This document shows positions 5,525-22,707 of a stretch of DNA of 36,220 nucleotides, in pieces (position 1 is the stretch's first letter; every line of letters starts with the position of its first letter). Source of the stretch: Nostoc sp. B(2019) (lineage in GTDB: Bacteria; Cyanobacteriota; Cyanobacteriia; Cyanobacteriales; Nostocaceae); contig NZ_WVID01000034.1 in the NCBI RefSeq assembly GCF_010091925.1, positions 27,832 to 64,051 on the forward strand, given 5' to 3'. The translations under genes were made by a program, and so were the position numbers. The notes below the pieces were generated by a model. It saw only the letters and a list, made by a program, of their open reading frames with translations. It did not search any database and was not told where the DNA came from.

Positions 5525-5646
5525 TAGGGGAATGGGGGAGTAGAAGAACAATTTTGAATTGTTATTTCCCCTCTCCTTATCCTCCTTTTCCACCAGTACT
5601 TTGGCAAAATATATTTAGAATGCCCGCGCAGGCTGAGAAAAATTTT

Positions 5647-6066
5647 ATGTCGGCTAAAGATAAATTTCATCATGTTGTGAAATCGGCATTACAAAAGGAC
5701 GGGTGGCGCATTACTCATGACCCCTTACTAATTCGCATAGAAGGCATAACCGATATGTACATTGACTTGGGAGCAGAGAGAATTATTGCCGCAGAAAGAG
5801 AGGGACAAACAATAGCAATTGAAGTTAAAAGTTTCATTGGCACTTCAACTATTTCCGAGTTTCATACTGCCGTTGGGCAGTTTATTAATTATCGCTATGC
5901 TTTAGAAGAAATAGGTTCTGAGCGAATTTTGTATTTAGCAGTGCCATTAAACACCTATAACGATTTTTTAATTAAACCGTTTATTCAAACTATTATCCAG
6001 CGTAGTCAAATCAATCTCATAGTTTATGACGTAGAAACGGAGGAAATTATCCGATGGCAGATTTAA
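5647..6066 (+). CDS. xisH: XisH family protein (fdxN element excision controlling factor)
   Basis: 139 residues from the ATG at 5647, where the family's usual start MSAKDKFHH begins. An upstream in-frame start at 5554 would add 31 unrelated Pro-rich residues and is less likely. The protein has the XisH pattern GW(R/K)ITHDPL near residues 19-27 and a PD-(D/E)xK nuclease-like core, with D40 in IDLGAE and E59-V-K61. In Anabaena, XisH and XisI are needed, with the XisF recombinase, for excision of the fdxN element in heterocysts. Most cyanobacterial copies, including this one, sit far from any such element, so their everyday role is open. The 3' end overlaps xisI by 13 bases. Confidence 0.9.
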   Translation: MSAKDKFHHVVKSALQKDGWRITHDPLLIRIEGITDMYIDLGAERIIAAEREGQTIAIEVKSFIGTSTISEFHTAVGQFINYRYALEEIGSERILYLAVPLNTYNDFLIKPFIQTIIQRSQINLIVYDVETEEIIRWQI

Positions 6067-8244: not shown

Positions 8245-9657
8245 TCACACTAATGCCTTCAGTAAAGCCTGAAGTTTGAGTTGCACCTCTGCAAACTCTT
8301 TATCAGGATCAGAACCGGCAACAATACCAGCACCGGCGTAAAGTCTAGCGCGATCGCCATCTATCAGTGCTGAACGAATTCCAACGATAAACTCACAGTT
8401 ACCCGCAGAGTCTATCCAACCCAGAGGCGCGGCATATAAACCCCTCTCAAAGCTTTCATAACGCCGAATTTCAGCACAGGCAACATCTCGTGCTGCACCC
8501 GCAACAGCTGGTGTCGGATGCAGTTGAGCGACAATTTTTAACGGGTGTACGTTGGTAGGAACGATGGCGCTGATTGGTGTCCATAAATGCTGGATGTTAG
8601 ATAATTGTCGCAGGCGTGGTGCTAACACCTGGGGTAATACACCCAGTTGGGATAAACGTTGAGTAATGAAATCAATTACCAACAAATGTTCATGCCTTTC
8701 TTTTTCACTATTTAATAAACGATTGGCATTGGCAGCATCTTCAGCAGGTGTTTTACCTCGTGGCGCAGAACCAGCCAAAGCATCGGTAATTAACTGCTGA
8801 TTATTAATACTAATTAATCTTTCTGGGCTTGCACCAATAAAGTTTTGTCCTTTACCATTACTTGTGGAAAATATATAACAATTAGGATGTATTTGCCTGA
8901 GATTATTTAATGATTTGAATAAGTTAAAATGATTACTTGATCTCACATCTAGCGTATCTGCTAGGACAATTTTACTTAAATGGCTAGAGCGAATTTTTTC
9001 CAGAACAGAAGATACTGAGCGTTTAAACTGAGTGGCATTTGCGACGGATTTCTTACGGAAGCTTGCCGGAAAACAATCAATATGGGGATAAGATTCTAAA
9101 GACTGGAGGAATTCAATTTTGCCCCGCATAGTCTGCAATACTCTTTGAATATTTACACTGCTATTGATAATTGTATTCGTTACTAATATACAACGCTGAT
9201 TTTTGACAGCTACTTGCCATCGTGGCAAGAAAACAGTAGCAGATGGAAATGGATAATCTGCTTGGGTATTTTTGTCAAAAAAACTGAAGTAACAAAAAAA
9301 ATGAGGCCCAGAAAAAGGTTGATTAGCGTTACCAAAGTTAATTATATTTTTTAGACAAGATTTGATAAAATATTCGGCTTTAGTAAAACGGTCTATACCA
9401 TCAATTTGTAATTTTGTTACAGTATCAATTGCCGCGATCGCTTCTCCTTTACCTTTATGCTCAAAGTAAAAATTTATTTCATTTACTTGTGTAAGTTTAT
9501 TCAATACAACTAAGGGGTCAACTAAGTCAATCTCTTGGGAAATACTGACAATTTGCCTGCTATTATTTTTGAGGCACTTTTCTTGCACTGCTAACAGAAA
9601 TTGATATAAATCTTTGTGCTCTACAAAGGAGTTGGTACGACATGGTGAAACTGTCAT
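8245..9657 (-). CDS. menF: Isochorismate synthase (phylloquinone biosynthesis)
   Basis: 470 residues, the expected length. The C-terminal two thirds are a chorismate-binding domain with KIVLADTLDV, the ASPERLI signature, LAGSAPRGKTPAEDAANANRLL, SEKERHEHLLVIDFI, HPTPAVAGAARDVA, and FERGLYAAPLGWID followed by YAGAGIVAGSDP.KE. It converts chorismate to isochorismate, the committed step toward phylloquinone, the A1 electron acceptor of photosystem I. The N-terminal third is divergent, as is usual. The gene is divergent from menA, with a 263-base shared upstream region. A salicylate-type isochorismate synthase is the alternative, but the neighbouring men genes make menF much more likely. Confidence 0.93.
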   Translation of the reverse strand: MTVSPCRTNSFVEHKDLYQFLLAVQEKCLKNNSRQIVSISQEIDLVDPLVVLNKLTQVNEINFYFEHKGKGEAIAAIDTVTKLQIDGIDRFTKAEYFIKSCLKNIINFGNANQPFSGPHFFCYFSFFDKNTQADYPFPSATVFLPRWQVAVKNQRCILVTNTIINSSVNIQRVLQTMRGKIEFLQSLESYPHIDCFPASFRKKSVANATQFKRSVSSVLEKIRSSHLSKIVLADTLDVRSSNHFNLFKSLNNLRQIHPNCYIFSTSNGKGQNFIGASPERLISINNQQLITDALAGSAPRGKTPAEDAANANRLLNSEKERHEHLLVIDFITQRLSQLGVLPQVLAPRLRQLSNIQHLWTPISAIVPTNVHPLKIVAQLHPTPAVAGAARDVACAEIRRYESFERGLYAAPLGWIDSAGNCEFIVGIRSALIDGDRARLYAGAGIVAGSDPDKEFAEVQLKLQALLKALV

Positions 9658-9836
9658 GGATCTAAAGTAAATTTTTTTTAAGTTAACTTCCTAAAGTGTA
9701 ATTAATCGTGGTCGTATTTCTACAGGTAACATATTAAGTCGCCATTTCACCAGCGTGTGGTTTGCCTTGTTTGTGGTGTTCCCAGACCCTAACAAGCTAA
9801 GCTCAGTATTGAGCTGCAACTTCAGTAGTACTCAAT

Positions 9837-9859
9837 CCTGAGTTCTGAGTCCTGAGTAT
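9837..9859. repeat. Short heptamer repeat (CTGAGTY) in the menF-menA promoter region
   Basis: Three consecutive CTGAGT(T/C) units lie between the divergent menF and menA genes. The same heptamer recurs as a hairpin at 29131-29157. These are short tandemly repeated sequences typical of Nostocales. The rest of 9658-9920 shows no gene. Confidence 0.6.
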
Positions 9860-9920
9860 AACCCCACGACTAAAGTCTCTTGTGTGAGTAACATTTTGGT
9901 ATTTTAATTAATTACGACTG

Positions 9921-10817
9921 ATGACTACCAAGCAGATTTTATATCCCAACACTAAGTTATGGATGGCGGCGATTAAACCGCCGATGTACAGCGTTGCCAT
10001 TATGCCCATTTGGGTAGGAACAGCAGTAGCATTTGCCGAAACTAAAATTTTGAATGGTGCAGTATTTTCAACTTTTGTAGCTGCGGCAATTTTAATTCTG
10101 GCGTGGGAAAATATCAGTAATGATGTGTTTGATTCCGAAACAGGGATTGATCAAAATAAACACCATTCTCTGGTTAACTTAACTGGCAATAAGTCATTAA
10201 TATTTTGGTTAGGAAATTTGTGTTTAGGTTTGGGATTGCTGGGCATATTAGCGATCGCAACTTGGCAACAAGACCCAACTATCATTGGCATAATTCTGCT
10301 TTGCTGTGCATTAGGCTACACATACCAAGGGCCACCCTTTCGCTTAGGATATCAAGGTTTAGGCGAGATTATTTGCTTTTTCGCCTTTGGCCCCTTGGCA
10401 GTAGCGGCAGCATATTACAGTCAAACTCAAACTTGGTCAATGACGAGTTTAGCAGCTTCAATAATTGTCGGCATCGTCACAAGTTTAATTTTGTTTTGCT
10501 CACACTTTCACCAAGTTAAAGATGACATAGCCGCCGGTAAGCGATCGCCTATCGTCCGTTTGGGAACAGCAAAAGCTGCTCAGCTCCTAATTTGGTTCAC
10601 TGGTGGCATTTATCCCCTCACCTTGCTGTTTGTGCTGTGGGGATTTTTTCCAATTTGGACTTTGCTGAGTTGGTTTAGTTTACCCTTTGCCGTCAAACTA
10701 TGTCGTCATGTCCAAAAAAATCATCACCAGCCAGAAAAAGTTAGTAACTGTAAATTCATCGCCGTAGCCGTACATTTTTGGAGTTGCTTACTGTTAGGTT
10801 TGGGATTTATGCTTTAG
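9921..10817 (+). CDS. menA: 1,4-dihydroxy-2-naphthoate phytyltransferase (MenA)
   Basis: 298 residues, a UbiA-family integral membrane prenyltransferase with eight or nine hydrophobic segments. The first Asp-rich substrate motif is N67-D68-VF-D71, followed by SETGID. The second is in the cytoplasmic loop HFHQVKDDIAAGKRSP near residue 200. It attaches the phytyl tail to 1,4-dihydroxy-2-naphthoate in the thylakoid or plasma membrane. It begins the rightward menA-menC-menE run; 90 bases separate it from menC. Confidence 0.93.
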   Translation: MTTKQILYPNTKLWMAAIKPPMYSVAIMPIWVGTAVAFAETKILNGAVFSTFVAAAILILAWENISNDVFDSETGIDQNKHHSLVNLTGNKSLIFWLGNLCLGLGLLGILAIATWQQDPTIIGIILLCCALGYTYQGPPFRLGYQGLGEIICFFAFGPLAVAAAYYSQTQTWSMTSLAASIIVGIVTSLILFCSHFHQVKDDIAAGKRSPIVRLGTAKAAQLLIWFTGGIYPLTLLFVLWGFFPIWTLLSWFSLPFAVKLCRHVQKNHHQPEKVSNCKFIAVAVHFWSCLLLGLGFML

Positions 10818-10862
10818 TAACTCTAGAAGTTGTGAGATTTTTCGTAGCGGCAGTCCTTGGTC

Positions 10863-10878
10863 ATTTGTAATTACAAAT
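10863..10878. repeat. Perfect 16-base palindrome between menA and menC
   Basis: ATTTGTAATTACAAAT is a perfect palindrome, flanked by further CAAATGAC/TCATTTGT units that continue to about 10902. It lies 30-45 bases before the menC start. It may be a dispersed cyanobacterial repeat, or it may have a role in message folding; nothing in the sequence decides this. Confidence 0.6.
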
Positions 10879-10907
10879 AACAAATGACATTTAGCAAATG
10901 ACTTTTA

Positions 10908-11921
10908 GTGACATACAGATTTAAATTTCGTCCGTATAGACATAGATTTGTGCAATCTTTAACTACCAGTCACGGTATTTGGGATATCCGGGATGGGATT
11001 ATCCTCAACCTCACCGATAAAACAGGTAGAGTTGGCTGGGGAGAAATTGCCCCCATTAGCTGGTTTGGTTCTGAAACCATAGAACAAGCTTTAGATTTTT
11101 GTCGCCAATTACCAGAGGAAATCACAGACGAGACAATTTTCTCCATTCCAGATGAGTTACCTGCTTGTCAATTTGGCTTTGAGTCAGCGTGGGAGATGGG
11201 GAGCAGATGGGATGGGGAGCAGACGGGATGGGGAGCAGAGGAGAATCTCAATTTACCCTCTGCTTCTAGCTCTCTCACCTATAGCGGCTTATTACCGGCT
11301 GGGGAAGCGGCTTTAAATCAGTGGGAAAAGTTATGGCAACAGGGATATCGTACGTTTAAATGGAAAATTGGTGTGTATGCGATCGCTAATGAACTGGAAA
11401 TTTTCGACATACTTACGCATAGCTTACCAACTTCTACAAAACTGCGATTAGATGCTAACGGCGGACTCAGCTATGAAGAGGCTAACTTATGGCTGTGGAC
11501 TTGCGACAGTATCAAGGCGAATGAAGAAATATCTATAGAAATCGAATTTATCGAACAACCGCTACCTGTTGAGCAATTTCAGGAAATGTTGGAATTAAGT
11601 ATATGTTATGGGACTGCGATCGCTTTGGATGAGTCTGTCGCCACACTTAACCAACTTGTCACCTGTTATCAACAAGGTTGGCGAGAAATTTTTGTTATTA
11701 AGCCTGCGATAGTCGGTTCACCATCTCGTCTACGACAATTTTGCCAACAGCATAAGATTGATGCTGTATTTTCATCAGTATTTGAAACTGCGATCGCAAG
11801 ACTTGCAGCACTCCAACTAGCAGCGGAATTATCTCAAAATAACAGAGCAGTTGGTTTTGGCATCAACCACTTTTTTGAACACAAAGAAACCTGGCTTCAA
11901 AGTCTATGGAACAACCTTTAG
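10908..11921 (+). CDS. menC: o-Succinylbenzoate synthase (MenC)
   Basis: 337 residues from a GTG start; the nearby ATG at 10898 is out of frame. Enolase-superfamily protein of the OSBS type. The catalytic lysine motif F-K151-W-K153 and the second lysine K265 (FVIKPAIVG) are present, as are the metal ligands D182 (LRLDANGG), the acidic residue in EFIEQP (216) and D241 (ALDES). It dehydrates SHCHC to o-succinylbenzoate. Residues about 95-115 (Trp/Gly/Glu-rich) come from a 16-base DNA tandem repeat and are probably a surface insertion. The gene overlaps menE by 16 bases, so translation is likely coupled. Confidence 0.93.
   Translation: MTYRFKFRPYRHRFVQSLTTSHGIWDIRDGIILNLTDKTGRVGWGEIAPISWFGSETIEQALDFCRQLPEEITDETIFSIPDELPACQFGFESAWEMGSRWDGEQTGWGAEENLNLPSASSSLTYSGLLPAGEAALNQWEKLWQQGYRTFKWKIGVYAIANELEIFDILTHSLPTSTKLRLDANGGLSYEEANLWLWTCDSIKANEEISIEIEFIEQPLPVEQFQEMLELSICYGTAIALDESVATLNQLVTCYQQGWREIFVIKPAIVGSPSRLRQFCQQHKIDAVFSSVFETAIARLAALQLAAELSQNNRAVGFGINHFFEHKETWLQSLWNNL
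11195..11242 (+). repeat. Three 16-base tandem repeats inside menC
   Basis: The units GATGGGGAGCAGATGG, GATGGGGAGCAGACGG and GATGGGGAGCAGAGGA follow each other exactly (11195-11210, 11211-11226, 11227-11242). Because 16 is not a multiple of three, each copy is read in a different frame and gives a different peptide. Three copies together (48 bases) restore the frame. Confidence 0.85.
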
Positions 11922-13291
11922 ACTATCTTAAAAAACGTGCTCAGTACGATTGGCTGATTACTCATAACAGCCTTCAGTTTCATAAAATAGCTGAAGAATT
12001 ATATTTAGAACTAATACAGTTATCAGTATATGGAACGCCACCAAAAATCATCTTAGCTGAACGCGAACCAATAAAGTTTTTAGCAGGTTTTATCGCTGCT
12101 TGTGCAGCTAATTGTCCAGTTTTTTTGTGTAACCCCGACTGGGGAAAACAAGAATGGCAACAAGTCTTTGATTTAGTACAGCCAGACATTATCTGGGGAC
12201 TGGGGACTGGGGATTGGGAAGAAAAGACTACCCCTTCTCCCACTCCTCAACTCCCCCGCTCAACACTCATCATGATTCCCACAGGTGGCTCATCGGGACA
12301 GATTAAATTTGCTATGCACACTTGGGAAACTCTCATGACATCTGTTCAAGGATTTACAGAATATTTTCAGCTAAAGCAAGTAAATTCTTTTTGTGTATTG
12401 CCGCTATATCATGTCAGTGGTTTGATGCAATTTATGCGCTCCTTCGCAACCGGAGGACAACTGGCTATCCTACCATTCAAAGCAGTAGAGTCTGGTCAAA
12501 AACTCAATATTGAACAATCAAAATTTTTCCTATCTTTAGTACCTACGCAGTTACAACGTCTCCTACAAAACCCAGAATTAACTGAGTGGCTAACCAAATT
12601 TAAAACCGTACTTTTGGGAGGTGCGCCAGCATGGAATGAACTGCTAGAAAAAGCGAGATTCCATTGCATCCGGTTATCACCTACGTATGGTATGACAGAA
12701 ACCGCCTCTCAAATTGCCACCCTTAAACCCGATGATTTTCTCAAAGGTAAAATAAGCAGTGGTCAGATTCTCCCCCATGCCCGTGTAACAATTCGCAATC
12801 GGCAAGGCGAAATTTTAAATTCAAATCAAATAGGAAATATTACTATCCAAGCCAAATCTTTAGCCCTTGGTTACTATTATCCAACTGAGAAAATACAAGA
12901 TTCTTTCCAAATAGATGACTTAGGTTTTTTAGATAACCAAGGTTATTTAAATATTATTGGGCGTAGTAGCGATAAAATCATTACAGGCGGTGAAAATATC
13001 TACCCAGCAGAAATTGAGTCAGCGATATTAGCAACTAAAACGGTTGCTGATATTTGTATTATCGGCATACCAGATAAATACTGGGGACAAGCATTAACAG
13101 CCATTTATATTCCTCAAAACTCAAATATCTCTACCTTAGAAATCCAAACCCTACTCAAAGACAAACTTAGCAAATTCAAAATCCCTAAACATTGGATTCC
13201 CCAGCAAAGCTTACCCCGCAACTCCCAAGGTAAAATCAACCGTCAAAAACTACAGCAAATAGCCACAAAATTCTTACATAATCTCTCTTGA
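11906..13291 (+). CDS. menE: o-Succinylbenzoate-CoA ligase (MenE)
   Basis: 461 residues, an ANL-superfamily adenylating enzyme. It has the phosphate-binding loop [12 protein letters not shown], the aromatic motif [10 protein letters not shown], the hinge motif [20 protein letters not shown] and the late lysine in [11 protein letters not shown] that serves adenylation. It makes o-succinylbenzoyl-CoA for MenB. It overlaps menC by 16 bases at the 5' end and the convergent thioesterase gene by 18 bases at the 3' end. Residues about 98-113 ([18 protein letters not shown]) are encoded by inserted short repeats and should be a loop. Confidence 0.94.
12195..12215 (+). repeat. GGGGACT heptamer repeat inside menE
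   Basis: Two perfect GGGGACT units and one GGGGATT unit lie in frame within menE. They are followed by a C-rich stretch (to about 12257) of similar repeat character. It is the type of heptamer array normally found between Nostocales genes. Confidence 0.75.
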
Positions 13292-13720
13292 CTTTCTTCT
13301 CTCTGCGCCCTCTGCGTCTCTGCGGTTCGTTTCCAACCACCGAATAATCTCATCAGGCAATTCCTGCTTACTTCTACTACTCACCTCAATACAAACGTGT
13401 CTAGTAATTGCCTTAGCAACAACCATATCACCAACTGAAATTTCATAAGCAATTTCAAACTTATCAATACCTAATTTTTGGGGCATTAAGCTAATCACTA
13501 ACTTATCACCGCAAAACATTGGGCGCAAAAAATCTACACTAGCATGAACAATCGGAAAAGCTACAGATGAGTTACTGAAAAAACCCTTGATATTAATACC
13601 TGATGTTTCTAGAGATTCTTCGTAAGCTTCATGACAAATACCCAAAACATTAGCAAAATAAACTACCCCAGCAGCATCAGTATCTTGAAAGTGAACTGTT
13701 CGATTATAAGTAAAAGGCAT
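13274..13720 (-). CDS. 1,4-Dihydroxy-2-naphthoyl-CoA thioesterase (hotdog fold)
   Basis: 148 residues, 4-hydroxybenzoyl-CoA thioesterase-like hotdog protein. It has the signature [27 protein letters not shown]15 of DTDAAG is the expected catalytic aspartate. The cyanobacterial enzyme of this type (Slr0204 in Synechocystis) releases DHNA from DHNA-CoA before MenA prenylation. It is convergent with menE and overlaps it by 18 bases. The last 15 or so residues (Arg/Glu-rich) are encoded by a dispersed CTCTGCG-type repeat at 13299-13325, so the natural C-terminus has been extended into repeat DNA. Confidence 0.9.
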
Positions 13721-13791: not shown

Positions 13792-14877
13792 TTAATTTAA
13801 GGGGTAATATATATCTTCAGAACTAGGATTTAGATAAGGATGCTGTAAATCAATTGAATGCTGTGCAAAGTGTTGGTCAATTACCCTCATCCGCTCCTCC
13901 ATTGCATTCTTACCTTTTTGCCAAGCTTCCAACAAAGCATTAGCTACAATTTGACAACGGTTCATCCCGAAACTCTCTTGCGCCGCAAATTTTTGAGTTG
14001 GTTCCTCAGCTAAACTCAGTCCTGGTGCTAAAAACTTTGTGAACAGTGGTATTTCGGCTTGAAAATGGGATTGATGTTCTGTATAAACGGACTGAAGGAT
14101 TTCGCGGATGGCTGGATAGTCGTGAAGTTCAAAGAAGAGTACCCCTGAGTCATAGCGTTCGTATGCAGAGGGGTTGTAGAGAACCTGAAAGCTAAAAGGA
14201 ATAGCCGCTGCATTTAGTTGCTGAGTTAGGCTTTGCATGAGCGCGATCGCACCAGATGGGGTGAAATTAAAATAGATTCTCCCTGCTCCCAAATCCGCAT
14301 CTGGGTTTTGCCGTTCTTGTCCAATATTGCTAACTGCTACATAACAACCGTTTTGCAGACGATTTTTGGGCATCCAGATGGCTATTAGCTCACCCGCTTT
14401 GGCAGATTTAATATTAGGTTTTAAATGACAGTCTGGCTCAACATAAAGTGTCAAACCGCCTTTAGCCACAGCCATACTACCATCAGGCTCTTGCCGCAAC
14501 ACCCGCCAACTAGGGTCAAAATAACCGATACCATGATTACACTCATGCAGTTGCCCATAAAATTCCCAATCAATTCCCAAGGCGGAATCGGTTTCTAAAT
14601 TATGGCACTGCGTGTGATTTGTACTTTGGGTATTAACTGCCAAAGTAGTTTGCAGCGAGCCATTGTAATAAATTCCATAAAGGAAATTTCGCAATAGCAA
14701 AGTGAGATACTTATGCTGCAAAGCTGAGGAGGTTTGCTGAAATCTGTCGGCTACTTTAGTCGGCAGAGCAAAGGGTTGATAGTTGGGATGGTAAATACAA
14801 AAGTTTGGCTCAATCTGGATATTGTTAACAATATCGAATAGTGTAGTTAGCAGTTGATTGGTAGAATAATCTAGCAT
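13792..14877 (-). CDS. HopA1-family protein, putative dehydrated-peptide lyase
   Basis: 361 residues. It matches the HopA1 domain family named after the type III effector, in its cyanobacterial form: GRIYFNFTPSGAIALMQSL, FSFQVLYNPSAYERYDSGVLFFE, PLFTKFLAPGLSLAEEP and AQESFGMNRCQIVANALLEAW. In actinobacteria, HopA1-like proteins (LxmY of lexapeptide; TvaD of thioviridamide) work with an APH-like kinase (LxmK; TvaC), the lyase eliminating phosphate from phosphorylated Ser/Thr. Just such a kinase gene lies 246 bases upstream on the same strand. The function here is inferred from that pairing. There is no type III secretion context, so an effector role is unlikely. No good ribosome-binding site precedes the ATG. 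Confidence 0.85.
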   Translation of the reverse strand: MLDYSTNQLLTTLFDIVNNIQIEPNFCIYHPNYQPFALPTKVADRFQQTSSALQHKYLTLLLRNFLYGIYYNGSLQTTLAVNTQSTNHTQCHNLETDSALGIDWEFYGQLHECNHGIGYFDPSWRVLRQEPDGSMAVAKGGLTLYVEPDCHLKPNIKSAKAGELIAIWMPKNRLQNGCYVAVSNIGQERQNPDADLGAGRIYFNFTPSGAIALMQSLTQQLNAAAIPFSFQVLYNPSAYERYDSGVLFFELHDYPAIREILQSVYTEHQSHFQAEIPLFTKFLAPGLSLAEEPTQKFAAQESFGMNRCQIVANALLEAWQKGKNAMEERMRVIDQHFAQHSIDLQHPYLNPSSEDIYYPLN

Positions 14878-15057
14878 TAATCGATTCAGAACTCAAAATT
14901 CAATAACCACTCTGTATCAAATATCTTTGCTGCTTGTAAAAAGCATAATATAAAATTTGTTACCACAGATAAATCGAAAATATTTATTTGTATTAGCCTA
15001 TAATTTGATTTTAAAACCTTCTAGTTTTTCATAAACTTCAATTCAAGCAAATTAGAC

Positions 15058-15125
15058 AAAAAATAGCATACAGAACAATTCAAAATCTCTCAATTATCTT
15101 TTAAATTGTTCTGTTCTATGCTATT
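15058..15125 (-). terminator. Strong rho-independent terminator after the kinase gene
   Basis: Nineteen paired bases in two blocks: AATAGCATA (15062-15070) with TATGCTATT (15117-15125), and CAGAACAATT (15071-15080) with AATTGTTCTG (15104-15113), with a 3-base bulge. On the minus strand a run of six T (15063-15058) ends the structure. It overlaps the kinase stop codon, so the kinase message should mostly stop before the HopA1 gene, which then needs its own promoter in 14878-15057. Confidence 0.85.
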
Positions 15126-16359
15126 AACAGCCACGCAGCCGAGTTTTTTCATAATAAATGCGAAGTACTTGCTGCTCTTTTGCTGGTTGAGGAACTTTAT
15201 GAAGGTTTCCCACAGGTTTGAGGATTTCTGACTCAGATATGCCGAAAATAGTCAGTACAGATTGCTCAGGCATAGTGAGCAAACTTTTAGCGACTTGAAG
15301 CATACAAATATCAGCATTATCAAAGTATTTGCGGCACGTAATCATCTCTTGAATTTGATGAACTAGTGCCAGCCCCGCAAATTGAATAACGCGCAAAATA
15401 AAATCACGACGGTATTCCAAAATCATGGGAAAAGCATTGAGATAAGCTCTAATTAAGGCAACTATTGAAGGTTGTATAACCTCTAGAGGTGTCATCGCCA
15501 AATGCAAAGATTCTTCTAATTCAATTGTGGGGTCTACTACAAGACTAGATAGCCAAATTTCTAAATAGCTTGCTAGTAAAGTTCCTAAATCAAATGCTGG
15601 ATCTCCCCAAGAGCAGGCTTCCCAGTCAATTAGCCGCACTAGACAATTGTCTAGCTGCTCCCACCTAGAATGAACCAAAATGTTATTTAATTTCAGGTCG
15701 TTATGTGTTAAGCAGCAAGGATGCCACTCATTTGCTAAATCAGCAATTGCTGATTCTAAACTTTCGTAGCGCTGATAGAGAATATAAAACTTTAGCGCCT
15801 CGGTGGGAACTGTACCAAAAATCTCTGGACTAATTGACCCTATTCCTTGCGCCGGATTGTAATAGCCATAGCGAAACTGTCCTTGAGGAGCAGTTGCCAT
15901 GAAATCACTATATTCTCGGCGGTTGAAGGTTGCACGATGCAGCCCAGCCAAAGTAGTGCCAATAGCGGAGGCAATTTCTAGTGGAAAAATATCATTTCTG
16001 TGATATACTCTCCCAAGTTCCAAATATTCACTGAGGTAATTGCGGACAAGGATAGAATTTTCCTCATCAAAGTGCAGCACTAGTGATGCGATCGCAGAAA
16101 TATTGCCTAGAACCGGAAACTGTTGAAGTAACTGATGAAATAGCCACTCATTAAAAAACTCATGCGGCATTCCATCATTATTAATACTACGTTCTTGTTT
16201 AACAAGTAGTTTACGGTTATCTGCCAGAGTCACCAGTAAATTGCAATTCTTACTACTTTCTGGTAACTCAGATTCATTTGCTGCGCCATCTTCTGAGCTA
16301 CACAGACCTGCATCTTGCAAATACTGGATAACGTTATGAGAAGACAGTGATAATACCAT
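15124..16359 (-). CDS. Aminoglycoside-phosphotransferase-like kinase, putative RiPP Ser/Thr kinase
   Basis: 411 residues with the APH/choline-kinase fold signatures: K54 (LLVKQE), the catalytic loop LTH-N220-D221-LKLN-N226 and the metal-binding D245 of IDWEACSWGDPAFDLG. AGGAA precedes the ATG at 16359. It could phosphorylate a small molecule, as many APH proteins do. Its neighbour downstream is a HopA1-family gene, and such kinase + HopA1 pairs dehydrate Ser/Thr in class V lanthipeptides (LxmK/LxmY) and thioamitides (TvaC/TvaD). That assignment is inferred from context; no precursor peptide is evident nearby. Confidence 0.85.
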   Translation of the reverse strand: MVLSLSSHNVIQYLQDAGLCSSEDGAANESELPESSKNCNLLVTLADNRKLLVKQERSINNDGMPHEFFNEWLFHQLLQQFPVLGNISAIASLVLHFDEENSILVRNYLSEYLELGRVYHRNDIFPLEIASAIGTTLAGLHRATFNRREYSDFMATAPQGQFRYGYYNPAQGIGSISPEIFGTVPTEALKFYILYQRYESLESAIADLANEWHPCCLTHNDLKLNNILVHSRWEQLDNCLVRLIDWEACSWGDPAFDLGTLLASYLEIWLSSLVVDPTIELEESLHLAMTPLEVIQPSIVALIRAYLNAFPMILEYRRDFILRVIQFAGLALVHQIQEMITCRKYFDNADICMLQVAKSLLTMPEQSVLTIFGISESEILKPVGNLHKVPQPAKEQQVLRIYYEKTRLRGC

Positions 16360-17173
16360 GTATTATTTCCTAGTTCCTAAAATTGCGGAGAGAATCACCT
16401 ATATCAGGATTGGCTTAGCTTTAGCCGTTTTCGGTAGATAGCAACTAGTGTGTGAATAACAATAACGATTGGTACAATCTACTAATATCCCATCTGTCTA
16501 ATAAAAACCTGCCAAAATGGCACGAAACCCTTTACTTTTCCTTTAAAATTTTCTCAAAGATACCATCAATTCTTTACATTTTTCAGCATAGTTACTTGTA
16601 TCTATCTAGAGTAGAGTTTTATCAGGAATTAACGTCACCACAAACAAACTGATTCGCAGTAAGTGCTAATTGCTGTTAAGTAGTCATTGATAAATGAAGA
16701 TATTTGCTCATCCTGAATCTGATGGAAAAATGTAGTAATAATAACAATATGTCAGCTTAGAAATAGCGAAAAATCTAATAGTTCCTTCGCATCAAGAAGC
16801 ATGACATTTGACCCTATTATTTTTATTGATCATCACAAAGCTAAGACAACCGGAAATTTTAGGCGGTAAATAATTAATTTTTTTTCATATTTTATTCTTT
16901 GCCACCTTGAAGTCTCAGTAACATATTAATTTTGTCAATAATAAGCTACTGACAAGCGTAAACGCGTAGCTATGTAACCAAAGTTGCGGGTTATCGACTG
17001 GCGTGTGCTTGTCACCCCTCAATTTATGCGATCGCATTTATTTTCATCATTAGACTGTAGACCCTGTAATCCGCAGCCTACAATGTTTTTGACCCCAATT
17101 AGTCAGAATTTTTTGACCAGGTTTTTTGAAAATTTTACTTTATCAATTTCTGTGATGTTACGATAAAAGCATC
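16360..17173. other. Long AT-rich intergenic region, no convincing gene
   Basis: About 800 bases without a supported gene. I searched both strands for a small Cys/Ser/Thr-rich precursor peptide for the neighbouring kinase and found none with a ribosome-binding site. Two short frames (16452-16652 from GTG; 17026-17163 from ATG, with two cysteines near its start) lack supporting signals. A CGCGTAGC fragment near 16964 resembles dispersed Nostoc repeats. Confidence 0.5.
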
Positions 17174-17200: not shown

Positions 17201-17254
17201 AAGTGAAAAGGTACTTAATTCAATTTACAAGTACAAAGGAAACTTTTGATACTT

Positions 17255-17614
17255 ATGGTTTTTGAAACTTATACTTACACACAAGCACGAGAAAAGCTGT
17301 CTGAACTGTGCCAGAAAGTTACTTCAGAACGCGATTTTGTAATCATTACACGTCGTAATGCTGAAAATGTAGCTCTAATAGCTGTTGATGAACTTTCTAG
17401 TATTCTAGAAACTGCTCATCTTTTACGTTCCCCTCGTAACGCTGAACGTTTGCTAACAGCTTTAAATCGAGCTAAATCAGGAGTTGTGAAATCTCAAAGC
17501 TTGGATGATCTTAGTAAGGAGTTAGGATTTGACCAAGAAGCAGAACCTCAAAAACCAATCAAAACAAGAAAATCCAGCAACTCCAAAGCAAAGAAAAACA
17601 GTATTTCAACCTGA
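17255..17614 (+). CDS. yefM: YefM-type antitoxin (Phd/YefM family)
   Basis: 119 residues from the ATG at 17255, which fits the family start (TYTQAREKLSELCQKV). A TTG at 17246 is in frame and has better spacing from the AAAGGA at 17235-17240, giving 122 residues. The core FVIITRRNAENVALIAVDELSSILETAHLLRSPRNAERLLTAL is the classic YefM block that binds DNA and leads into the toxin-binding helix. The C-terminal tail is long, Lys/Ser-rich and probably disordered. It neutralises YoeB and represses the operon with it. The gene overlaps yoeB by 86 bases in another frame, much more than the usual few bases. Confidence 0.92.
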   Translation: MVFETYTYTQAREKLSELCQKVTSERDFVIITRRNAENVALIAVDELSSILETAHLLRSPRNAERLLTALNRAKSGVVKSQSLDDLSKELGFDQEAEPQKPIKTRKSSNSKAKKNSIST

Positions 17615-17846
17615 ATTTTTAGAAGACTTAAAATTTTGGGTGGAAAATGATCAACGAGTTACCCTTAAAGTTTTGGATCTTGTCAAAGAGACTTGCCAAG
17701 ATCCTTTTAAGGGGAAAGGTAAGCCAGAACCTTTAAAATATTTAGATCCTAATACTTGGTCTCGCCGCATAACACAAGAACATAGAATTGTATATCTTGT
17801 AAAAGATGATGAAATAAATTTTTTACAAGCTCGTTATCATTATTAA
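17529..17846 (+). CDS. yoeB: YoeB-type ribosome-dependent mRNA interferase toxin
   Basis: 105 residues from a TTG start; no Met codon lies before the conserved part. The YoeB core starts near residue 26 (FQPEFLEDLKFWVEND) and includes DPFKGKGKPEPLKYL and WSRRITQEHRIVYLV, ending in ARYHY. The E. coli catalytic residues E46, R65 and H83, with the terminal Tyr, correspond to E67, R86, H104 and Y105, all present, so the toxin looks active. About 20 extra N-terminal residues arise from the long overlap with yefM; the true start may be a non-standard codon nearer the core. It cuts mRNA at the ribosomal A site when freed from YefM. Confidence 0.92.
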   Translation: MTKKQNLKNQSKQENPATPKQRKTVFQPEFLEDLKFWVENDQRVTLKVLDLVKETCQDPFKGKGKPEPLKYLDPNTWSRRITQEHRIVYLVKDDEINFLQARYHY

Positions 17847-18406: not shown

Positions 18407-18493
18407 TGTTAAAACCTATGTAGATTTTGACTTTACTGCCAGGGTCAGCAGACAATTTACCATAGCTGTTTAGCTATATCACCCAGTTGATTG

Positions 18494-19855
18494 ATGGATA
18501 ATCAAGCGATGCCAACGGCAAGTACTTCCTACTACACAAAGGTTCAATTTCTCCAGCGCCAAGCAGCGTCACTTTTACTGTACCAATCTGTCCTCCAAGG
18601 CGAAGTAGGGGTGGCATTTCTTGACCTGTTGCAAGCGATACGTTACACTGATGCCGATGCGCGGGGTTGCCTCCAAGCCTACGGTACTTACTTCCACGCT
18701 TTGGCTGCTAGAAATCAAAATTGGGAGGACTACCTAATTACTCAAATTCTCATCTCAGAGAACCCTTTTACAAGGCTTGCTCAACAGCGAGAATTTAAGG
18801 ATTTGCCCCCAGCTTTAGTAACAGCAGCTCAACATGATTTACAAGTATTGCAGAGTCTCTATGAATGTAGCAGCGCTTCTTTGAGTGAGTGGGTACAAAC
18901 CGTAGCCCATCTGCCAATTTCACCAGTTGTTTGGTATCAAGAATTGAAAGAGGTAGGAGTAGGCACAAGATTCACCGCATCTCTACAACATTTAGAAAAT
19001 TGGGGTAATGCTGTAGAAGATTTAGCAGCTTATTACCGGCAATTCGGCTCAGGTTTATTTGCAGAATATCGCGCTCTCCGCTGGCAATCTGGGCAGTTTA
19101 TCGGTATTCGGTATTCAGATCCAGTTAAACTTAGCACACTTGTAGGTTACGAGTCTCAGCGAGATGCTTTGCTAAAAAATACAGAGTTTTTATTATCAGG
19201 AGAAATGGCACTACACGTATTACTTTACGGTAGTCGCGGTTCGGGAAAATCTTCTTTGGTGAAAGCTTTATTGAATGAATATAGCTATCACAACCTCCGT
19301 TTGTTGGAAGTGGCAAAATCTGATTTAAAAGATTTACCAGAAATTGTAGAACATCTGCGGGGAGTGTCACAAAAATTTATCATCTTTGTCGATGACCTTT
19401 CTTTTGAAGAAGATGATGATGCCTTTAAAGCACTCAAAGTGGTTTTAGAAGGCAATTTAACCGCACGACCTCAAAACGCAGTTGTGTATGCCACCTCCAA
19501 CCGTCGCCACTTGATTCGAGAGTTTTTTGTCGATAGACCTGCTCCCAAAGACAATGAAGAGATCCATGCATGGGATACTATGCAAGAGAAGCTTTCATTT
19601 AGCGATCGCTTTGGTTTAACCTTAACCTTTGAACCAGCCGATCAGAAAACTTATTTAAAAATTGTTGGGCATCTAGCAGCACAAGCTGAAATTAATATTA
19701 AGCCAGAAGATTTAGAATATCAAGCATTACAATGGGCAACTCGTCACAACGGTCGTTCTGGTCGCACAGCACGGCAGTTTGTTGATTTTTTAAAAGCAGA
19801 TTTAGCGCTCTCTAGTGCAAATAACAATACGTTCGATACACAACCTGAAAATTAA
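18494..19855 (+). CDS. DUF815 AAA+ ATPase
   Basis: 453 residues from the ATG at 18494; a TTG immediately before it is the alternative. The N-terminal half is helical and unassigned. The C-terminal half is a DUF815 P-loop ATPase: Walker A GSRGSGKSSL (Lys near 252), Walker B FIIFVDDLSF near 300, then the family signature VVLEGNL.ARPQNAVVYATSNRRHLI, a DRFGLTLTFEPADQ.TYL motif and an arginine-rich RSGRTARQFVDFL end. The family resembles AAA+ remodelling or loader proteins; no substrate is known. It ends 20 bases before the downstream TTG frame (146 before the preferred ATG of the coiled-coil gene), so the genes may share a message. Confidence 0.88.
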   Translation: MDNQAMPTASTSYYTKVQFLQRQAASLLLYQSVLQGEVGVAFLDLLQAIRYTDADARGCLQAYGTYFHALAARNQNWEDYLITQILISENPFTRLAQQREFKDLPPALVTAAQHDLQVLQSLYECSSASLSEWVQTVAHLPISPVVWYQELKEVGVGTRFTASLQHLENWGNAVEDLAAYYRQFGSGLFAEYRALRWQSGQFIGIRYSDPVKLSTLVGYESQRDALLKNTEFLLSGEMALHVLLYGSRGSGKSSLVKALLNEYSYHNLRLLEVAKSDLKDLPEIVEHLRGVSQKFIIFVDDLSFEEDDDAFKALKVVLEGNLTARPQNAVVYATSNRRHLIREFFVDRPAPKDNEEIHAWDTMQEKLSFSDRFGLTLTFEPADQKTYLKIVGHLAAQAEINIKPEDLEYQALQWATRHNGRSGRTARQFVDFLKADLALSSANNNTFDTQPEN

Positions 19856-20001
19856 TTTGCTGATAATTTATTTTTTTGTTACTTATAAAACAGTCTGATG
19901 CACAAATACTTAAAATTGGAGATTTCAAAACAACTATATCAGGGGTAATAACCTTACTAACTACTTATTCTGATAACTTAACTACCCTAAAAATAAGCAA
20001 T

Positions 20002-21288
20002 ATGCAATCAGTAATGGTAAGCAATCGATTTATCCTAGGCATAGTAGCCTTCAGTGTGAGTTTTGGACTCAGCCTTGTCCCAAGCTGGGATTTCAATAAA
20101 GCCTTTCTCACAGGTGTAATTACCGTACTTGCTACATATACAGCAGCATTATTTGTAGATAAGCGACGTAGAAATCATGAAATGCTTGTTTTAGGTTCTC
20201 TCCGCAAACGAATTAAAGAGATGGAGGGATTGAAGTCCCGTATTGTCAGAGAAATCAACCAAATAGAAGACCATCGTAGTTTATTATACTCAGAGTCAAA
20301 GCAACTACAAAATCAAGTTATAGAATGCCGTAATCAAAGGGATAGTCTCAATCGAGAGTTAAGCACTTTTGCAGGACAAAGAAAGCAGTTAGACGCTGAA
20401 ATAAACAACCTGAAAACTGAACTTTATAATCTTGATAAAAGTAAAACAGAACTGAACAATTCTTTTTCTACTCTTACATCTGAAAAACGTCGTTTAGAGT
20501 TGAATTATAATACATCTCGTGCTGAAATCACTCAGTTACAAACTCAAATTGGTGAACTCCAGCAAGAAAAACGAGAACTTGAAAGCAATTTAACTCTGCT
20601 AGGCAGACTCAAACCTCAACTAGAAGAAAAATTACACGAACTGCGAATCAAAATTCAAGAGCTAGAAACTGAAGTAACTACGGAAAATCAATTATTAGTA
20701 GCTACAACCAATGCCAGAACAAATATCGAAGCTAGCCTGAATTCTTTTCAAACTCAAATTGCATCTCAGAAAGTTGAACTTAATAATTTACAAGAGCAAA
20801 TCTCATTATTACAAGAAGAACGAGATCTGTTGCAAAACCAAGTTTGGGAATTACTCCAACAAGTAGAAATAATTAACCCGGAACCTTTGGCTGAAGACAC
20901 ACAGGGAGATAATCTGGACTTGTTTCCTTTTTCTGAATTAATTGAACCCTTAGAATTAATAGATACTAAAGTTGATATATCGGAAAATTTACCTGCGGAA
21001 TGGACTAACTTTCTGGAAAAACTACCAGGAGATGAAATACAAGTATTAAAAGCCATAGTTGAGCTAGATAATCCCAAAGCAGCTATTAAACAGATTGCTG
21101 AAGCAAATATTACCATGCCAAATTTATTAATAGATTCTATAAATGAACGGGCAAATGATACTATTGGTGAATTAATAATTGAAACTAATTTGGAAATTCC
21201 ACAAGTTTATCAAGAGCATATCGCAAACGTCAGAAAAATGATTGCAATGTATGAAATTCTCATGGCTAGACACGCCTCATCAAATTAA
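20002..21288 (+). CDS. Membrane-anchored coiled-coil protein with TerB-C-like C-terminus
   Basis: 428 residues from the ATG at 20002. A longer frame from a TTG at 19876 and a shorter one from ATG 20014 are possible; none has a good ribosome-binding site. Two hydrophobic segments (about residues 10-27 and 33-50) precede a basic stop (DKRRRN). Residues about 60-300 form a long coiled coil rich in Glu, Gln, Leu and Lys. The end (about 340-425: EWTNFLEKLPGDEIQVLKAIVE, then MPNLLIDSINERANDTIGELIIE and VYQEHI) resembles the TerB C-terminal domain of tellurite/stress and defence-linked systems. It is followed after 96 bases by a BrxD-like ATPase, a pairing known in Ter- and BREX-related operons. I infer a membrane-bound structural partner of that ATPase. 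Confidence 0.8.
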   Translation: MQSVMVSNRFILGIVAFSVSFGLSLVPSWDFNKAFLTGVITVLATYTAALFVDKRRRNHEMLVLGSLRKRIKEMEGLKSRIVREINQIEDHRSLLYSESKQLQNQVIECRNQRDSLNRELSTFAGQRKQLDAEINNLKTELYNLDKSKTELNNSFSTLTSEKRRLELNYNTSRAEITQLQTQIGELQQEKRELESNLTLLGRLKPQLEEKLHELRIKIQELETEVTTENQLLVATTNARTNIEASLNSFQTQIASQKVELNNLQEQISLLQEERDLLQNQVWELLQQVEIINPEPLAEDTQGDNLDLFPFSELIEPLELIDTKVDISENLPAEWTNFLEKLPGDEIQVLKAIVELDNPKAAIKQIAEANITMPNLLIDSINERANDTIGELIIETNLEIPQVYQEHIANVRKMIAMYEILMARHASSN

Positions 21289-21384
21289 ATTATTCTTGCC
21301 GTCGTCAGATTATTAGTGAGGTGAGCATAAGCCTTACCTACTGGCTACGCGCCTCTGCGTTTAAAATAAAGTGAGGTGTAATAA

Positions 21385-22707
21385 ATGGCAAAGCTCAAAA
21401 TCTCGAAAAAAATATCTACTGCTTTAATCAATTCTCTTGGTGCAGGGGTAGTACCAAGAGCGGGAGTTGAACATATAGCAGTAGGTCGAGAAAAGGAACT
21501 TAAAAGCCTATTACAAAATCTTGACGACATTGCAGAAGGTGTAGCGTCATTTCGTTTTATAATTGGTAACTACGGTTCAGGGAAAAGCTTCCTGCTACAA
21601 ATGGTTCGTAACCGTGCTATGGAGCAAGGGTTTGTAGTAGCTGATGCTGATTTATCTTCCGAACGCCGATTGGCAGGAACTAATAACGAAGGTCTAGCAA
21701 CCTATCGAGAATTAATGAGCCGCCTAGCTACAAAAACTCGTCCTGATGGTGGTGCTTTAGTCTCAATTTTGGAAGGATGGATTAATAAAATTCAACAAGA
21801 AGTTGTTAAAGAAACTGGAATGCGTCCTAATGATGATGGTTTTGATGACCAAGTTGAAGCAAAAATTAGGGAAGTAGTCCAGTATATTGAAGACTTAGTT
21901 CACGGATTTGATTTTGGCAGCGTTATTATTGCGTATTGGCGTGGCTACCGATTAGATGATGATGAATTGAAAAACGCCGCAATGCGTTGGTTTCGTGGAG
22001 AATTTAGTACTAAAACTGAGGCAAAAGCAGCCTTGGGAGTGCGAGTAATTATTGATGATGATAGTTGGTATGACTACATTAAATTATTCGCTAAGTTTGT
22101 GGCTGAGATTGGCTATAAAGGACTTTTAGTGTTGCTTGATGAAGCCGTACATATATATCAAATATCAACTACGGTTACTCGTGAAAAAAATTATAATAGA
22201 CTACTGGCAATGTTTAATGACACTATGCAGTGCAAAGCAGAACATCTTGGCATTGTCATTGGTGGAACAACCAGATTTTTAGAAGATCCAAACCGGGGAC
22301 TTTTTGCAGATCAAGCTTGGCGGAGGCGCACAAAAGAAAGCCGTTTTGTCACACAAGCTGGTGTTCAAGAATATTTAGGGCCAGTAATTCGACTAAACCC
22401 GTTAAGTGAAGAAGAAATCCTCACGCTTTTGCAACGCCTAACTGAGATTCATGCTGTCAATTTTGGGTATGACGAAGCTTTGACAAATCGTGAGTTAAAG
22501 GAGTTTGTCCAAGAAATTGTCAATCGCTTGGGTGCAGAGGCATTACTTACTCCAGGGGAAATTGTACGGGATTTTATGAGTTTGTTGAATATTATTCATC
22601 AAAATCCAGGAATTTCGTTTGGTGAATTAATTCATGGCTCTAAATTTAAACCTACTGCTGCGGGGAAAGATGTGGATGAAGATAATGCAGCGGAGTTTAG
22701 TTTGTGA
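21385..22707 (+). CDS. BrxD-like ATP-binding protein (DUF2791 type)
   Basis: 440 residues, with GAGGTG before the ATG. It contains a P-loop ATPase domain: IGNYGSGKSFL with K67, Walker B GLLVLLDEAVHIYQ (D252, E253), and the later GGTTRFLEDPNRGLFADQAWRRR and LLTPGEIVRDFMSLLNII typical of the BREX-type ATPase BrxD / DUF2791 family. The N-terminus (INSLGAGVVPRAGVEHIAVGREKE) is also characteristic. In BREX type 2 and Ter-related operons such ATPases accompany an Lhr-like helicase. Here the stop codon overlaps a GTG that opens only a short reading frame, apparently the cut-off start of that helicase. Most likely part of a phage-defence or stress module, now incomplete. Confidence 0.85.
   Translation: MAKLKISKKISTALINSLGAGVVPRAGVEHIAVGREKELKSLLQNLDDIAEGVASFRFIIGNYGSGKSFLLQMVRNRAMEQGFVVADADLSSERRLAGTNNEGLATYRELMSRLATKTRPDGGALVSILEGWINKIQQEVVKETGMRPNDDGFDDQVEAKIREVVQYIEDLVHGFDFGSVIIAYWRGYRLDDDELKNAAMRWFRGEFSTKTEAKAALGVRVIIDDDSWYDYIKLFAKFVAEIGYKGLLVLLDEAVHIYQISTTVTREKNYNRLLAMFNDTMQCKAEHLGIVIGGTTRFLEDPNRGLFADQAWRRRTKESRFVTQAGVQEYLGPVIRLNPLSEEEILTLLQRLTEIHAVNFGYDEALTNRELKEFVQEIVNRLGAEALLTPGEIVRDFMSLLNIIHQNPGISFGELIHGSKFKPTAAGKDVDEDNAAEFSL

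What the first reader, a model, noticed from the sequence alone, without database searches (positions are those of the whole stretch)
13792..16359. Stand-alone kinase + HopA1 pair: candidate RiPP dehydratase in a cyanobacterium
An intact APH-like kinase (K54, D221, N226, D245) lies next to a HopA1-family gene on the same strand. Established: LxmK/LxmY (class V lanthipeptides) and TvaC/TvaD (thioamitides) are kinase + HopA1 pairs that phosphorylate and then eliminate phosphate from Ser/Thr. Inference: this pair is a split peptide dehydratase acting on a precursor encoded elsewhere, or on a different substrate. No precursor, cysteine decarboxylase or YcaO gene is visible nearby, so the module would be new in context.
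Basis: partly seen in the sequence, partly recalled or inferred. Interest (0 to 1): 0.75.

Follow-up and report, generated by a model that had tools for sequence, protein, structure and literature searches.

The report
Lyase-dead peptide-dehydratase pair in heterocystous cyanobacteria
This is a kinase and partner-enzyme gene pair related to machines that modify antibiotic peptides, but in this version the partner has lost its key catalytic residue, the peptide genes are gone, and the pair is kept by almost all members of the heterocyst-forming cyanobacterial family, so it probably does a different and still unknown job.

Summary
In detail: window 15124-16359(-) is an APH-like kinase and 13792-14877(-) a HopA1-family protein; both resemble the lexapeptide dehydratase LxmKY. 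The genome has two more such pairs, which look like ordinary cyanobacterial RiPP dehydratases with GG-leader precursors. The window pair is a separate orthologous clade: core-type kinase in 212 of 217 Nostocaceae genomes and in none of about 364 other genomes of the class.

Precursor-leader ORFs lie in 0 of 35 core loci against 57 of 58 paralogue loci; 14 of 20 genomes with only a core-type kinase have no recognisable leader. The core kinase has a conserved C-terminal tail (..YYEKTRLRGC). In 10 of 108 distinct core kinases the metal-binding Asp is also gone, yet dN/dS stays near 0.1.

Best reading: a conserved non-eliminating 'pseudo-dehydratase' complex that phosphorylates, or only binds, an unlinked substrate. 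No heterocyst role is shown, the substrate is unknown, and nothing was tested at the bench.

The parts
15124..16359 (-). LanK/LxmK-like APH kinase, core-clade member (411 aa; K54, D221, N226, D245 intact here)
15127..15168 (-). Clade-specific C-terminal tail of the kinase, VLRIYYEKTRLRGC; absent in paralogous kinases
13792..14877 (-). HopA1-family (LanY/LxmY-like) protein, predicted to lack pSer/pThr lyase activity (361 aa)
14185..14187 (-). Codon of Q231, at the place of the catalytic Lys (CaoY K219; Lys also in LxmY)
13274..13720 (-). 4HBT thioesterase (MenI/YbgC-like), directly downstream; found in 32 of 35 core loci and in 38 of 80 named loci
16510..16522 (-). Inverted repeat TGCCATTTTGGCA about 150 bp upstream of the kinase start; clade-specific conserved upstream element of unknown use

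Best explanation
The pair descends from a class V-type (LanK/LanY) Ser/Thr dehydratase but is no longer a dehydratase. Early in the Nostocaceae (heterocyst-forming) lineage the HopA1 subunit lost the general-base lysine, the precursor and exporter genes were left behind, and the kinase gained a conserved C-terminal tail. I propose that the two proteins still form the LxmKY-type heterodimer. In most species, this one included, the kinase phosphorylates Ser/Thr of a protein or peptide encoded elsewhere, and the HopA1 subunit binds and presents the substrate or the phospho-product without eliminating phosphate. The tail would dock in the complex or recruit a partner. In a few, mostly Nostoc, lineages even the kinase chemistry seems dispensable, so a binding or regulatory role may be the selected one. 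Shown here: clade, distribution, residue changes, tail, absence of the known precursor type, purifying selection. Inferred: loss of lyase activity, heterodimer, substrate in trans, tail function.
For: HopA1 core clade is one side of a branch (quick tree, SH-aLRT 97*, 35 v 61 rows); kinase core clade likewise against 6 chosen paralogues (108 v 6 rows, 100*). Position 231 aligns with the Lys of LxmY (9dk1_B); counted by hand in that alignment, LxmY has the spacing R-32-K-10-R and K-17-Y of the published CaoY R187, K219, R229, Y236. Core: Q94 E7 H4 Y1 K1 of 107 distinct; paralogues K77 E2 of 79 distinct. CaoY K219A gave only phosphorylated peptide (PMC9486802 section 6). The Y236 position is Y in 76 of 107 core v 72 of 79 paralogues. 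Precursor-leader HMM: 0 of 35 core loci v 57 of 58 paralogue loci (12 of the 58 gave the 15 sequences of the profile). Core-type kinase in 212 of 217 Nostocaceae (G141 partial), in 23 of 24 Nostocaceae and 0 of about 364 others in a class-wide draw. Tail: L408 in 125 of 125, C411 in 122 of 125 rows. dN/dS 0.07-0.17 for the window v 7 relatives, both genes.
Against: One core HopA1 (L165) has Lys at 231; its kinase has D245N. R200 and R241 and most of the fold are kept, so another base could act. Kinase catalytic residues are intact in this genome. Elimination and phosphorylation were not measured. The HopA1 model is moderate (mean pLDDT 66.6) and the kinase model poor (52.5); no complex could be predicted. 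Trans-encoded substrates with a different leader would have been missed. G017, a complete genome with hetR, lacks the core kinase, so the pair is not strictly universal.
Confidence: 0.55

Rival explanations
1. It is still an active peptide dehydratase: another residue replaces the lysine as base and the pair works in trans on a precursor encoded elsewhere.
For: Rest of the HopA1 family core is conserved, R200/R241 mostly kept; the own genome has leader-like ORFs on contigs C15, C52 and (weak, E 0.001) C42, away from the three HopA1 loci; six of 20 core-only genomes do have one or two leader matches.
Against: K219A kills elimination in CaoY; the residue is K in 77 of 79 distinct paralogues but in 1 of 107 distinct core proteins; 14 of 20 core-only genomes have no leader match at E<=0.01; of the other six, three have a best E of 5e-3 to 2.7e-5 and three of 8e-9 to 2e-9.
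Confidence: 0.15
2. A phospho-signalling complex of heterocyst-forming cyanobacteria: the pair phosphorylates or senses a developmental or cell-cell-communication protein.
For: In 212 of 217 Nostocaceae and not found outside in the class draw; hetR is found in 214 of the same 217 genomes. Simm et al. 2015 (PMC4365693, section 13 read) list one aminoglycoside phosphotransferase, alr2463, among genes with orthologues in all six heterocyst formers and in no other cyanobacterium of their set, 9.8-fold up at 12 h and 3.6-fold at 21 h of nitrogen step-down.
Against: I could not show that alr2463 is this kinase: no held genome was recognised as PCC 7120 and the hetR distance test settled nothing. Clade restriction is not function. 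G017 has hetR but no core kinase.
Confidence: 0.2
3. It belongs to phylloquinone (vitamin K1) synthesis or its regulation, because it sits beside menI and opposite menE/C/A/F.
For: A MenI-like gene in 32 of 35 core loci, menE in 28 of 35.
Against: No MenI-like gene in the stretches (up to 7 kb each side, some shorter) of 42 of 80 named loci, while kinase and HopA1 stay together. Men genes outside Nostocaceae were not searched.
Confidence: 0.05
4. A decaying relict without function.
For: Loss of the lyase Lys; loss of D245 in 10 of 108 distinct kinases, and single changes at D221 (two rows) and N226 (one row) of 125.
Against: dN/dS about 0.1 for both genes, also between D245N lineages (kinase 0.09-0.17, HopA1 0.06-0.11); near-universal retention.
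Confidence: 0.05

Closest known systems
LxmKY / CaoKY, class V lanthipeptide dehydratases (PDB 9DK1-9DK3)
   Same: Kinase + HopA1-fold pair; best structural match for both models (E 4.4e-14, E 2.2e-3, weak); kinase catalytic residues kept
   Different: Catalytic Lys replaced, no precursor of the known type, no cysteine decarboxylase hit, extra kinase tail, near-universal distribution in one family
Cyanobacterial HopA1/phosphotransferase RiPP clusters (Family 1A of Eyles et al. 2021, PMC8153245; type-B of PMC9486802)
   Same: Nearest paralogues; the two other pairs in this genome (L033, L034) look like this type
   Different: Those have GG-leader precursors and often peptidase-ABC/HlyD exporter genes, keep the Lys and lack the tail. 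That my leader family is their Family 1A is inferred from the description, not compared by sequence
Thioamitide TvaC/TvaD (TsaC/TsaD)
   Same: Same two protein families acting as a dehydration pair (literature)
   Different: No YcaO hit in the window ORFs scanned; proteins not compared by sequence
alr2463, 'aminoglycoside phosphotransferase', heterocyst-specific gene list of Simm et al. 2015
   Same: Kinase family name and phylogenetic distribution agree
   Different: Orthology not established

Membership tests
Class V LanKY dehydratase | APH-like kinase with catalytic Lys/Asp/Asn/Asp | tested here: met
   window kinase has all four
Class V LanKY dehydratase | LxmK equivalog score (NCBIfam NF038156 cut-off 315) | tested here: not met
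   67.6 bits; two precursor-linked paralogues of the same genome also fail it, 78.8 and 88.5 bits
Class V LanKY dehydratase | HopA1/LanY fold partner encoded alongside | tested here: met
Class V LanKY dehydratase | Lyase general-base Lys (CaoY K219) | tested here: not met
   Q231 here; 1 of 107 distinct core proteins has Lys
Class V LanKY dehydratase | Arg187 and Arg229 equivalents | tested here: met
   R200 and R241 present in the window protein; R in 112 and 122 of 124 core rows
Class V LanKY dehydratase | Precursor peptide in the cluster | tested here: not met
   0 of 35 core loci with the cyanobacterial GG-leader profile; other leaders not excluded
Class V LanKY dehydratase | Stable kinase-lyase heterodimer | not testable with these tools
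   no complex prediction offered
Class V LanKY dehydratase | Dehydration of Ser/Thr | not testable with these tools
   needs biochemistry
PF17914 HopA1 family | Over Pfam gathering score | tested here: met
   213.4 bits v 22.7
Thioamitide TvaC/TvaD | YcaO gene in the cluster | tested here: not met
   no YcaO among the Pfam hits of the 30 window ORFs scanned
Thioamitide TvaC/TvaD | Thioamitide-type precursor; sequence relation to TvaC/TvaD themselves | not tested
   no TvaA/C/D sequence was fetched

The most novel reading that the evidence does not exclude
A core, clade-defining regulatory complex of heterocyst-forming cyanobacteria made from a retired antibiotic-peptide dehydratase: the HopA1 subunit has become a phosphate-retaining pseudo-lyase, the kinase carries a built-in docking tail, and the complex modifies or senses a cellular protein instead of making a RiPP.
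Probability: 0.4. Interest if true: 0.75.

Novelty: new variant of a known kind. Interest (0 to 1): 0.6.

Why it matters
[quoted passage not shown] The pair is present in nearly all Nostocaceae genomes searched and appears to be a distinct, non-eliminating offshoot. If true, it is a case of a natural-product dehydratase turned into a conserved cellular complex, it gives a simple one-residue filter (position 231) to clear false RiPP calls, and it hands the heterocyst field an almost universal gene pair, not found in the other genomes of the class that were sampled, whose knock-out is straightforward.

Tried and rejected
NtcA sites: GTAN8TAC occurs upstream in 53 of 121 core loci against 13.7 in shuffles, but 50 of the hits lie at about -14 (mostly GTAGGAAATAATAC), the ribosome-binding stretch, so this was dropped. 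Inverted-repeat regulon: TGCCANNNTGGCA is upstream of the kinase in 103 of 121 core loci and 0 of 59 paralogue kinases; exact TGCCATTTTGGCA occurs 0-7 times per genome in 12 genomes (reversed control 0-3), but the other sites examined share no gene family, so no regulon could be named. Lanthionine on the kinase's own tail (T406...C411): rejected as main reading because C411 is F in 3 and T406 is P or A in 7 of 125 rows. Locating PCC 7120 alr2463 by its distance from hetR: no held genome could be recognised as PCC 7120, so the expression datum is only a lead. AlphaFold of the kinase was poor (mean pLDDT 52.5), so the tail's place is unknown; its Foldseek hits to LxmK are weak (best E 2.2e-3). 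Ten literature searches listed no paper that by title, abstract or the passages seen treats this clade; the library lacks most subscription papers, and I saw only listings for most hits.

Rows dropped and limits: three HopA1 ORFs under 300 aa (L124, L126, L127) from the tree and first alignment; two fragments (L145, L162); kinase ORFs under 350 aa (in L113 and L042), and those under 300 aa (one in L042, and the cut-off L218). 'Core' was set by phmmer score to the window kinase (over 500 bits, over 485 later), before the residues were counted. One search counts include four loci (L128-L131) that repeat earlier ones and other repeats; distinct-sequence counts are. The leader profile A3 was built from 15 of the 196 clustered precursor ORFs, out of 12 of the 58 loci, so hits in those 12 are by construction. 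The fetched core stretches differ in length (4.5-36 kb). The 20 'core-only' genomes were picked among those with one kinase match at E<=1e-60, not all of them; a single HopA1 gene was checked for nine of them. The named set is the best 80 of 168 relatives found.

Full report
Observation. The window lies in a 7.43 Mb cyanobacterial genome (G000, contig C37). ORF 15124-16359(-) is an APH-like kinase and ORF 13792-14877(-) a HopA1-family protein, 247 bp apart on the same strand. The kinase's best NCBIfam match is LxmK (E 1e-18, well under the equivalog cut-off). The HopA1 protein matches one sequence in the PDB, chain B of 9DK1-9DK3 (E 3.1e-6), which is LxmY in the lexapeptide dehydratase complex; the predicted fold gives the same entries first (E 4.4e-14), and even the poor kinase model finds LxmK first, weakly (E 2.2e-3).

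Two kinds of pair. The genome has three HopA1 genes. A search of 60 genomes (this one and 59 relatives) found HopA1 in 36 of 36 Nostocaceae and 5 of 24 others; I fetched 95 stretches around these genes and sorted them. The window pair belongs to a 'core' clade: 35 of the 36 Nostocaceae genomes have it, with kinase then HopA1 on one strand, and only G017 lacks it; the genomes outside the family have none. In the HopA1 tree the 35 core and 61 other proteins are separated by one well-supported branch. The other pairs look like precursor-linked RiPP dehydratases: the 58 non-core loci hold a 196-member family of small ORFs with a conserved leader and GG motif, and conserved neighbours include peptidase-type ABC exporters and HlyD-like proteins (the exporter names are my reading of the sequences). 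With a profile of the leader (15 sequences from 12 of these loci), 57 of 58 non-core loci have hits (174 ORFs) and 0 of 35 core loci do.

Distribution. With a profile of the core kinase, 214 of 217 Nostocaceae genomes match at E<=1e-60; leaving out G017 and G208, whose best match is of the non-core type, 212 of 217 have the core type (G141 only as a piece at a contig end). The misses are G017, G208, G209, G212 and G122: the last is 54% complete, three of the others are in 860-1300 contigs, G017 is one contig. In a class-wide draw of 388 genomes, the 24 listed from the family included 23 with the core type (669 bits or more over the whole profile); among the remaining about 364 the best score was 480 bits, in an alignment running through a stop codon, and the ORF there has no such tail (L220). 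In the named collection the best 80 of 168 relatives were kept: 77 Nostocales by NCBI taxonomy, one Plectonema (NCBI: Oscillatoriales) and two without an order. HopA1 follows the kinase in 79 of 80; in the other (L162) only a 71-aa piece is seen before the contig ends. The men-gene neighbourhood is not constant: a MenI-like gene is near in 32 of 35 core loci but in only 38 of the 80 named loci, most of the loci without it being Nostoc.

The lyase subunit. In the alignment to LxmY, window residue 231 falls on the lysine of 'AKVLSDP'. The published CaoY residues R187, K219, R229 and Y236 have the same spacing in LxmY (my count on that alignment), which fixes the register. K219A in CaoY left only phosphorylated peptide, R187A nearly so, R229Q was inefficient (PMC9486802, section 6). 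Core proteins have Q94, E7, H4, Y1, K1 at this place (107 distinct), paralogues K77, E2 (79 distinct); the Tyr position has also relaxed (Y in 76 of 107 v 72 of 79), while R200 (96 of 107 v 72 of 79) and R241 (105 of 107) are kept about as well as in paralogues. The mix Q/E/H/Y argues against a new specific base at this place. I read this as loss of elimination chemistry with the protein otherwise kept. The one exception with Lys, L165, has D245N in its kinase.

The kinase. K54, H219 and N220 are invariant in 125 core rows; D221 is kept in 123, N226 in 124, D245 in 115. D245 is lost (nine N, one Q) in 10 of 108 distinct core kinases, needing 5 changes on the quick tree, but in 0 of 79 paralogue rows. 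Pairs of D245N lineages show the same low dN/dS (kinase 0.09-0.17) as other pairs (one very close D-D pair, dS 0.004, gave an uninformative 1.75). The window kinase itself is intact. The core kinases end in a tail of about 14 residues after a variable linker, typically [LV][LVI][RP][LI]YYEKTRLRGC, absent from paralogues; L408 is invariant in 125 rows, C411 is C in 122 and F in 3.

Substrate. In 20 picked genomes with a single, core-type kinase, 14 have no match to the leader profile at E<=0.01 and six have one or two; six comparison genomes with non-core pairs have 3 to 15. So the pair does not seem to need that precursor family. A precursor with another leader is not excluded. No small ORF family was recognised as a partner beside the core pair: the intergenic small-ORF clusters listed are a Tmemb_14 membrane protein gene and stretches that I take for conserved noncoding DNA.

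Interpretation. The simplest account is a LanKY-type heterodimer that has given up elimination, and in some lineages perhaps catalysis altogether, and serves as a phosphorylating or binding complex. Heterodimer formation is inferred from LxmKY, where co-expression makes both subunits stable and soluble (PMC12141560, section 10). A heterocyst role is suggested by the distribution and by alr2463 in the list of Simm et al. (PMC4365693, section 13), but I could not connect alr2463 to this kinase and hold that as a lead only. Membership: it is built from the same two protein families as class V dehydratases, but fails the tests for catalytic lysine and linked precursor, so I do not file it as a class V lanthipeptide synthetase.

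Novelty. HopA1/phosphotransferase pairs in Cyanobacteria as RiPP enzymes are known (1,340 HopA1 proteins, 96% beside a phosphotransferase, Family 1A; PMC8153245, passages; type-B peptides, PMC9486802, passages and sections 6-7). That broad count may well include members of this clade. The separation of a precursor-less, lysine-less, tail-bearing clade in Nostocaceae was not met in the ten paper searches or in the passages read. Other papers seen only in passages: PMC10880069, PMC4788461, PMC13060382.

Noticed in passing
window 16510-16522 (-): Inverted repeat TGCCATTTTGGCA upstream of the kinase; TGCCANNNTGGCA is there in 103 of 121 core loci and 0 of 59 paralogue kinases. The exact repeat recurs elsewhere in most of 12 genomes without a shared target gene among the sites examined.
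   Followed up: partly
L042, L044, L062, L237: Second kinase/HopA1 pairs whose kinase has D221N plus N226K, and in two of them (L062, L237) HopA1 has Glu at the catalytic Lys: another, separate set of apparently dead pairs.
   Followed up: no
G000 contigs C15 (2579), C42 (13266) and C52 (756): RiPP leader-like ORFs in this genome away from the three HopA1 loci; the one on C42 is weak (E 0.001).
   Followed up: no
window 18491-22707 (+): DUF815 AAA protein, TerB_C coiled-coil protein and BrxC/D-type ATPase in a row, each found near the core pair in 20-24 of 35 core loci; function unknown.
   Followed up: no
window 17246-17846 (+): YefM/YoeB-type toxin-antitoxin pair (Pfam PhdYeFM and YoeB).
   Followed up: no
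window 5554-6066 (+): XisH family gene.
   Followed up: no
G004:C68:210966-211424 (L124): Broken non-core HopA1 with an internal stop and no kinase found in the fetched stretch.
   Followed up: no
window 8245-13291: Phylloquinone genes menF, menA, menC, menE beside the pair (names by Pfam family and recalled pathway).
   Followed up: partly
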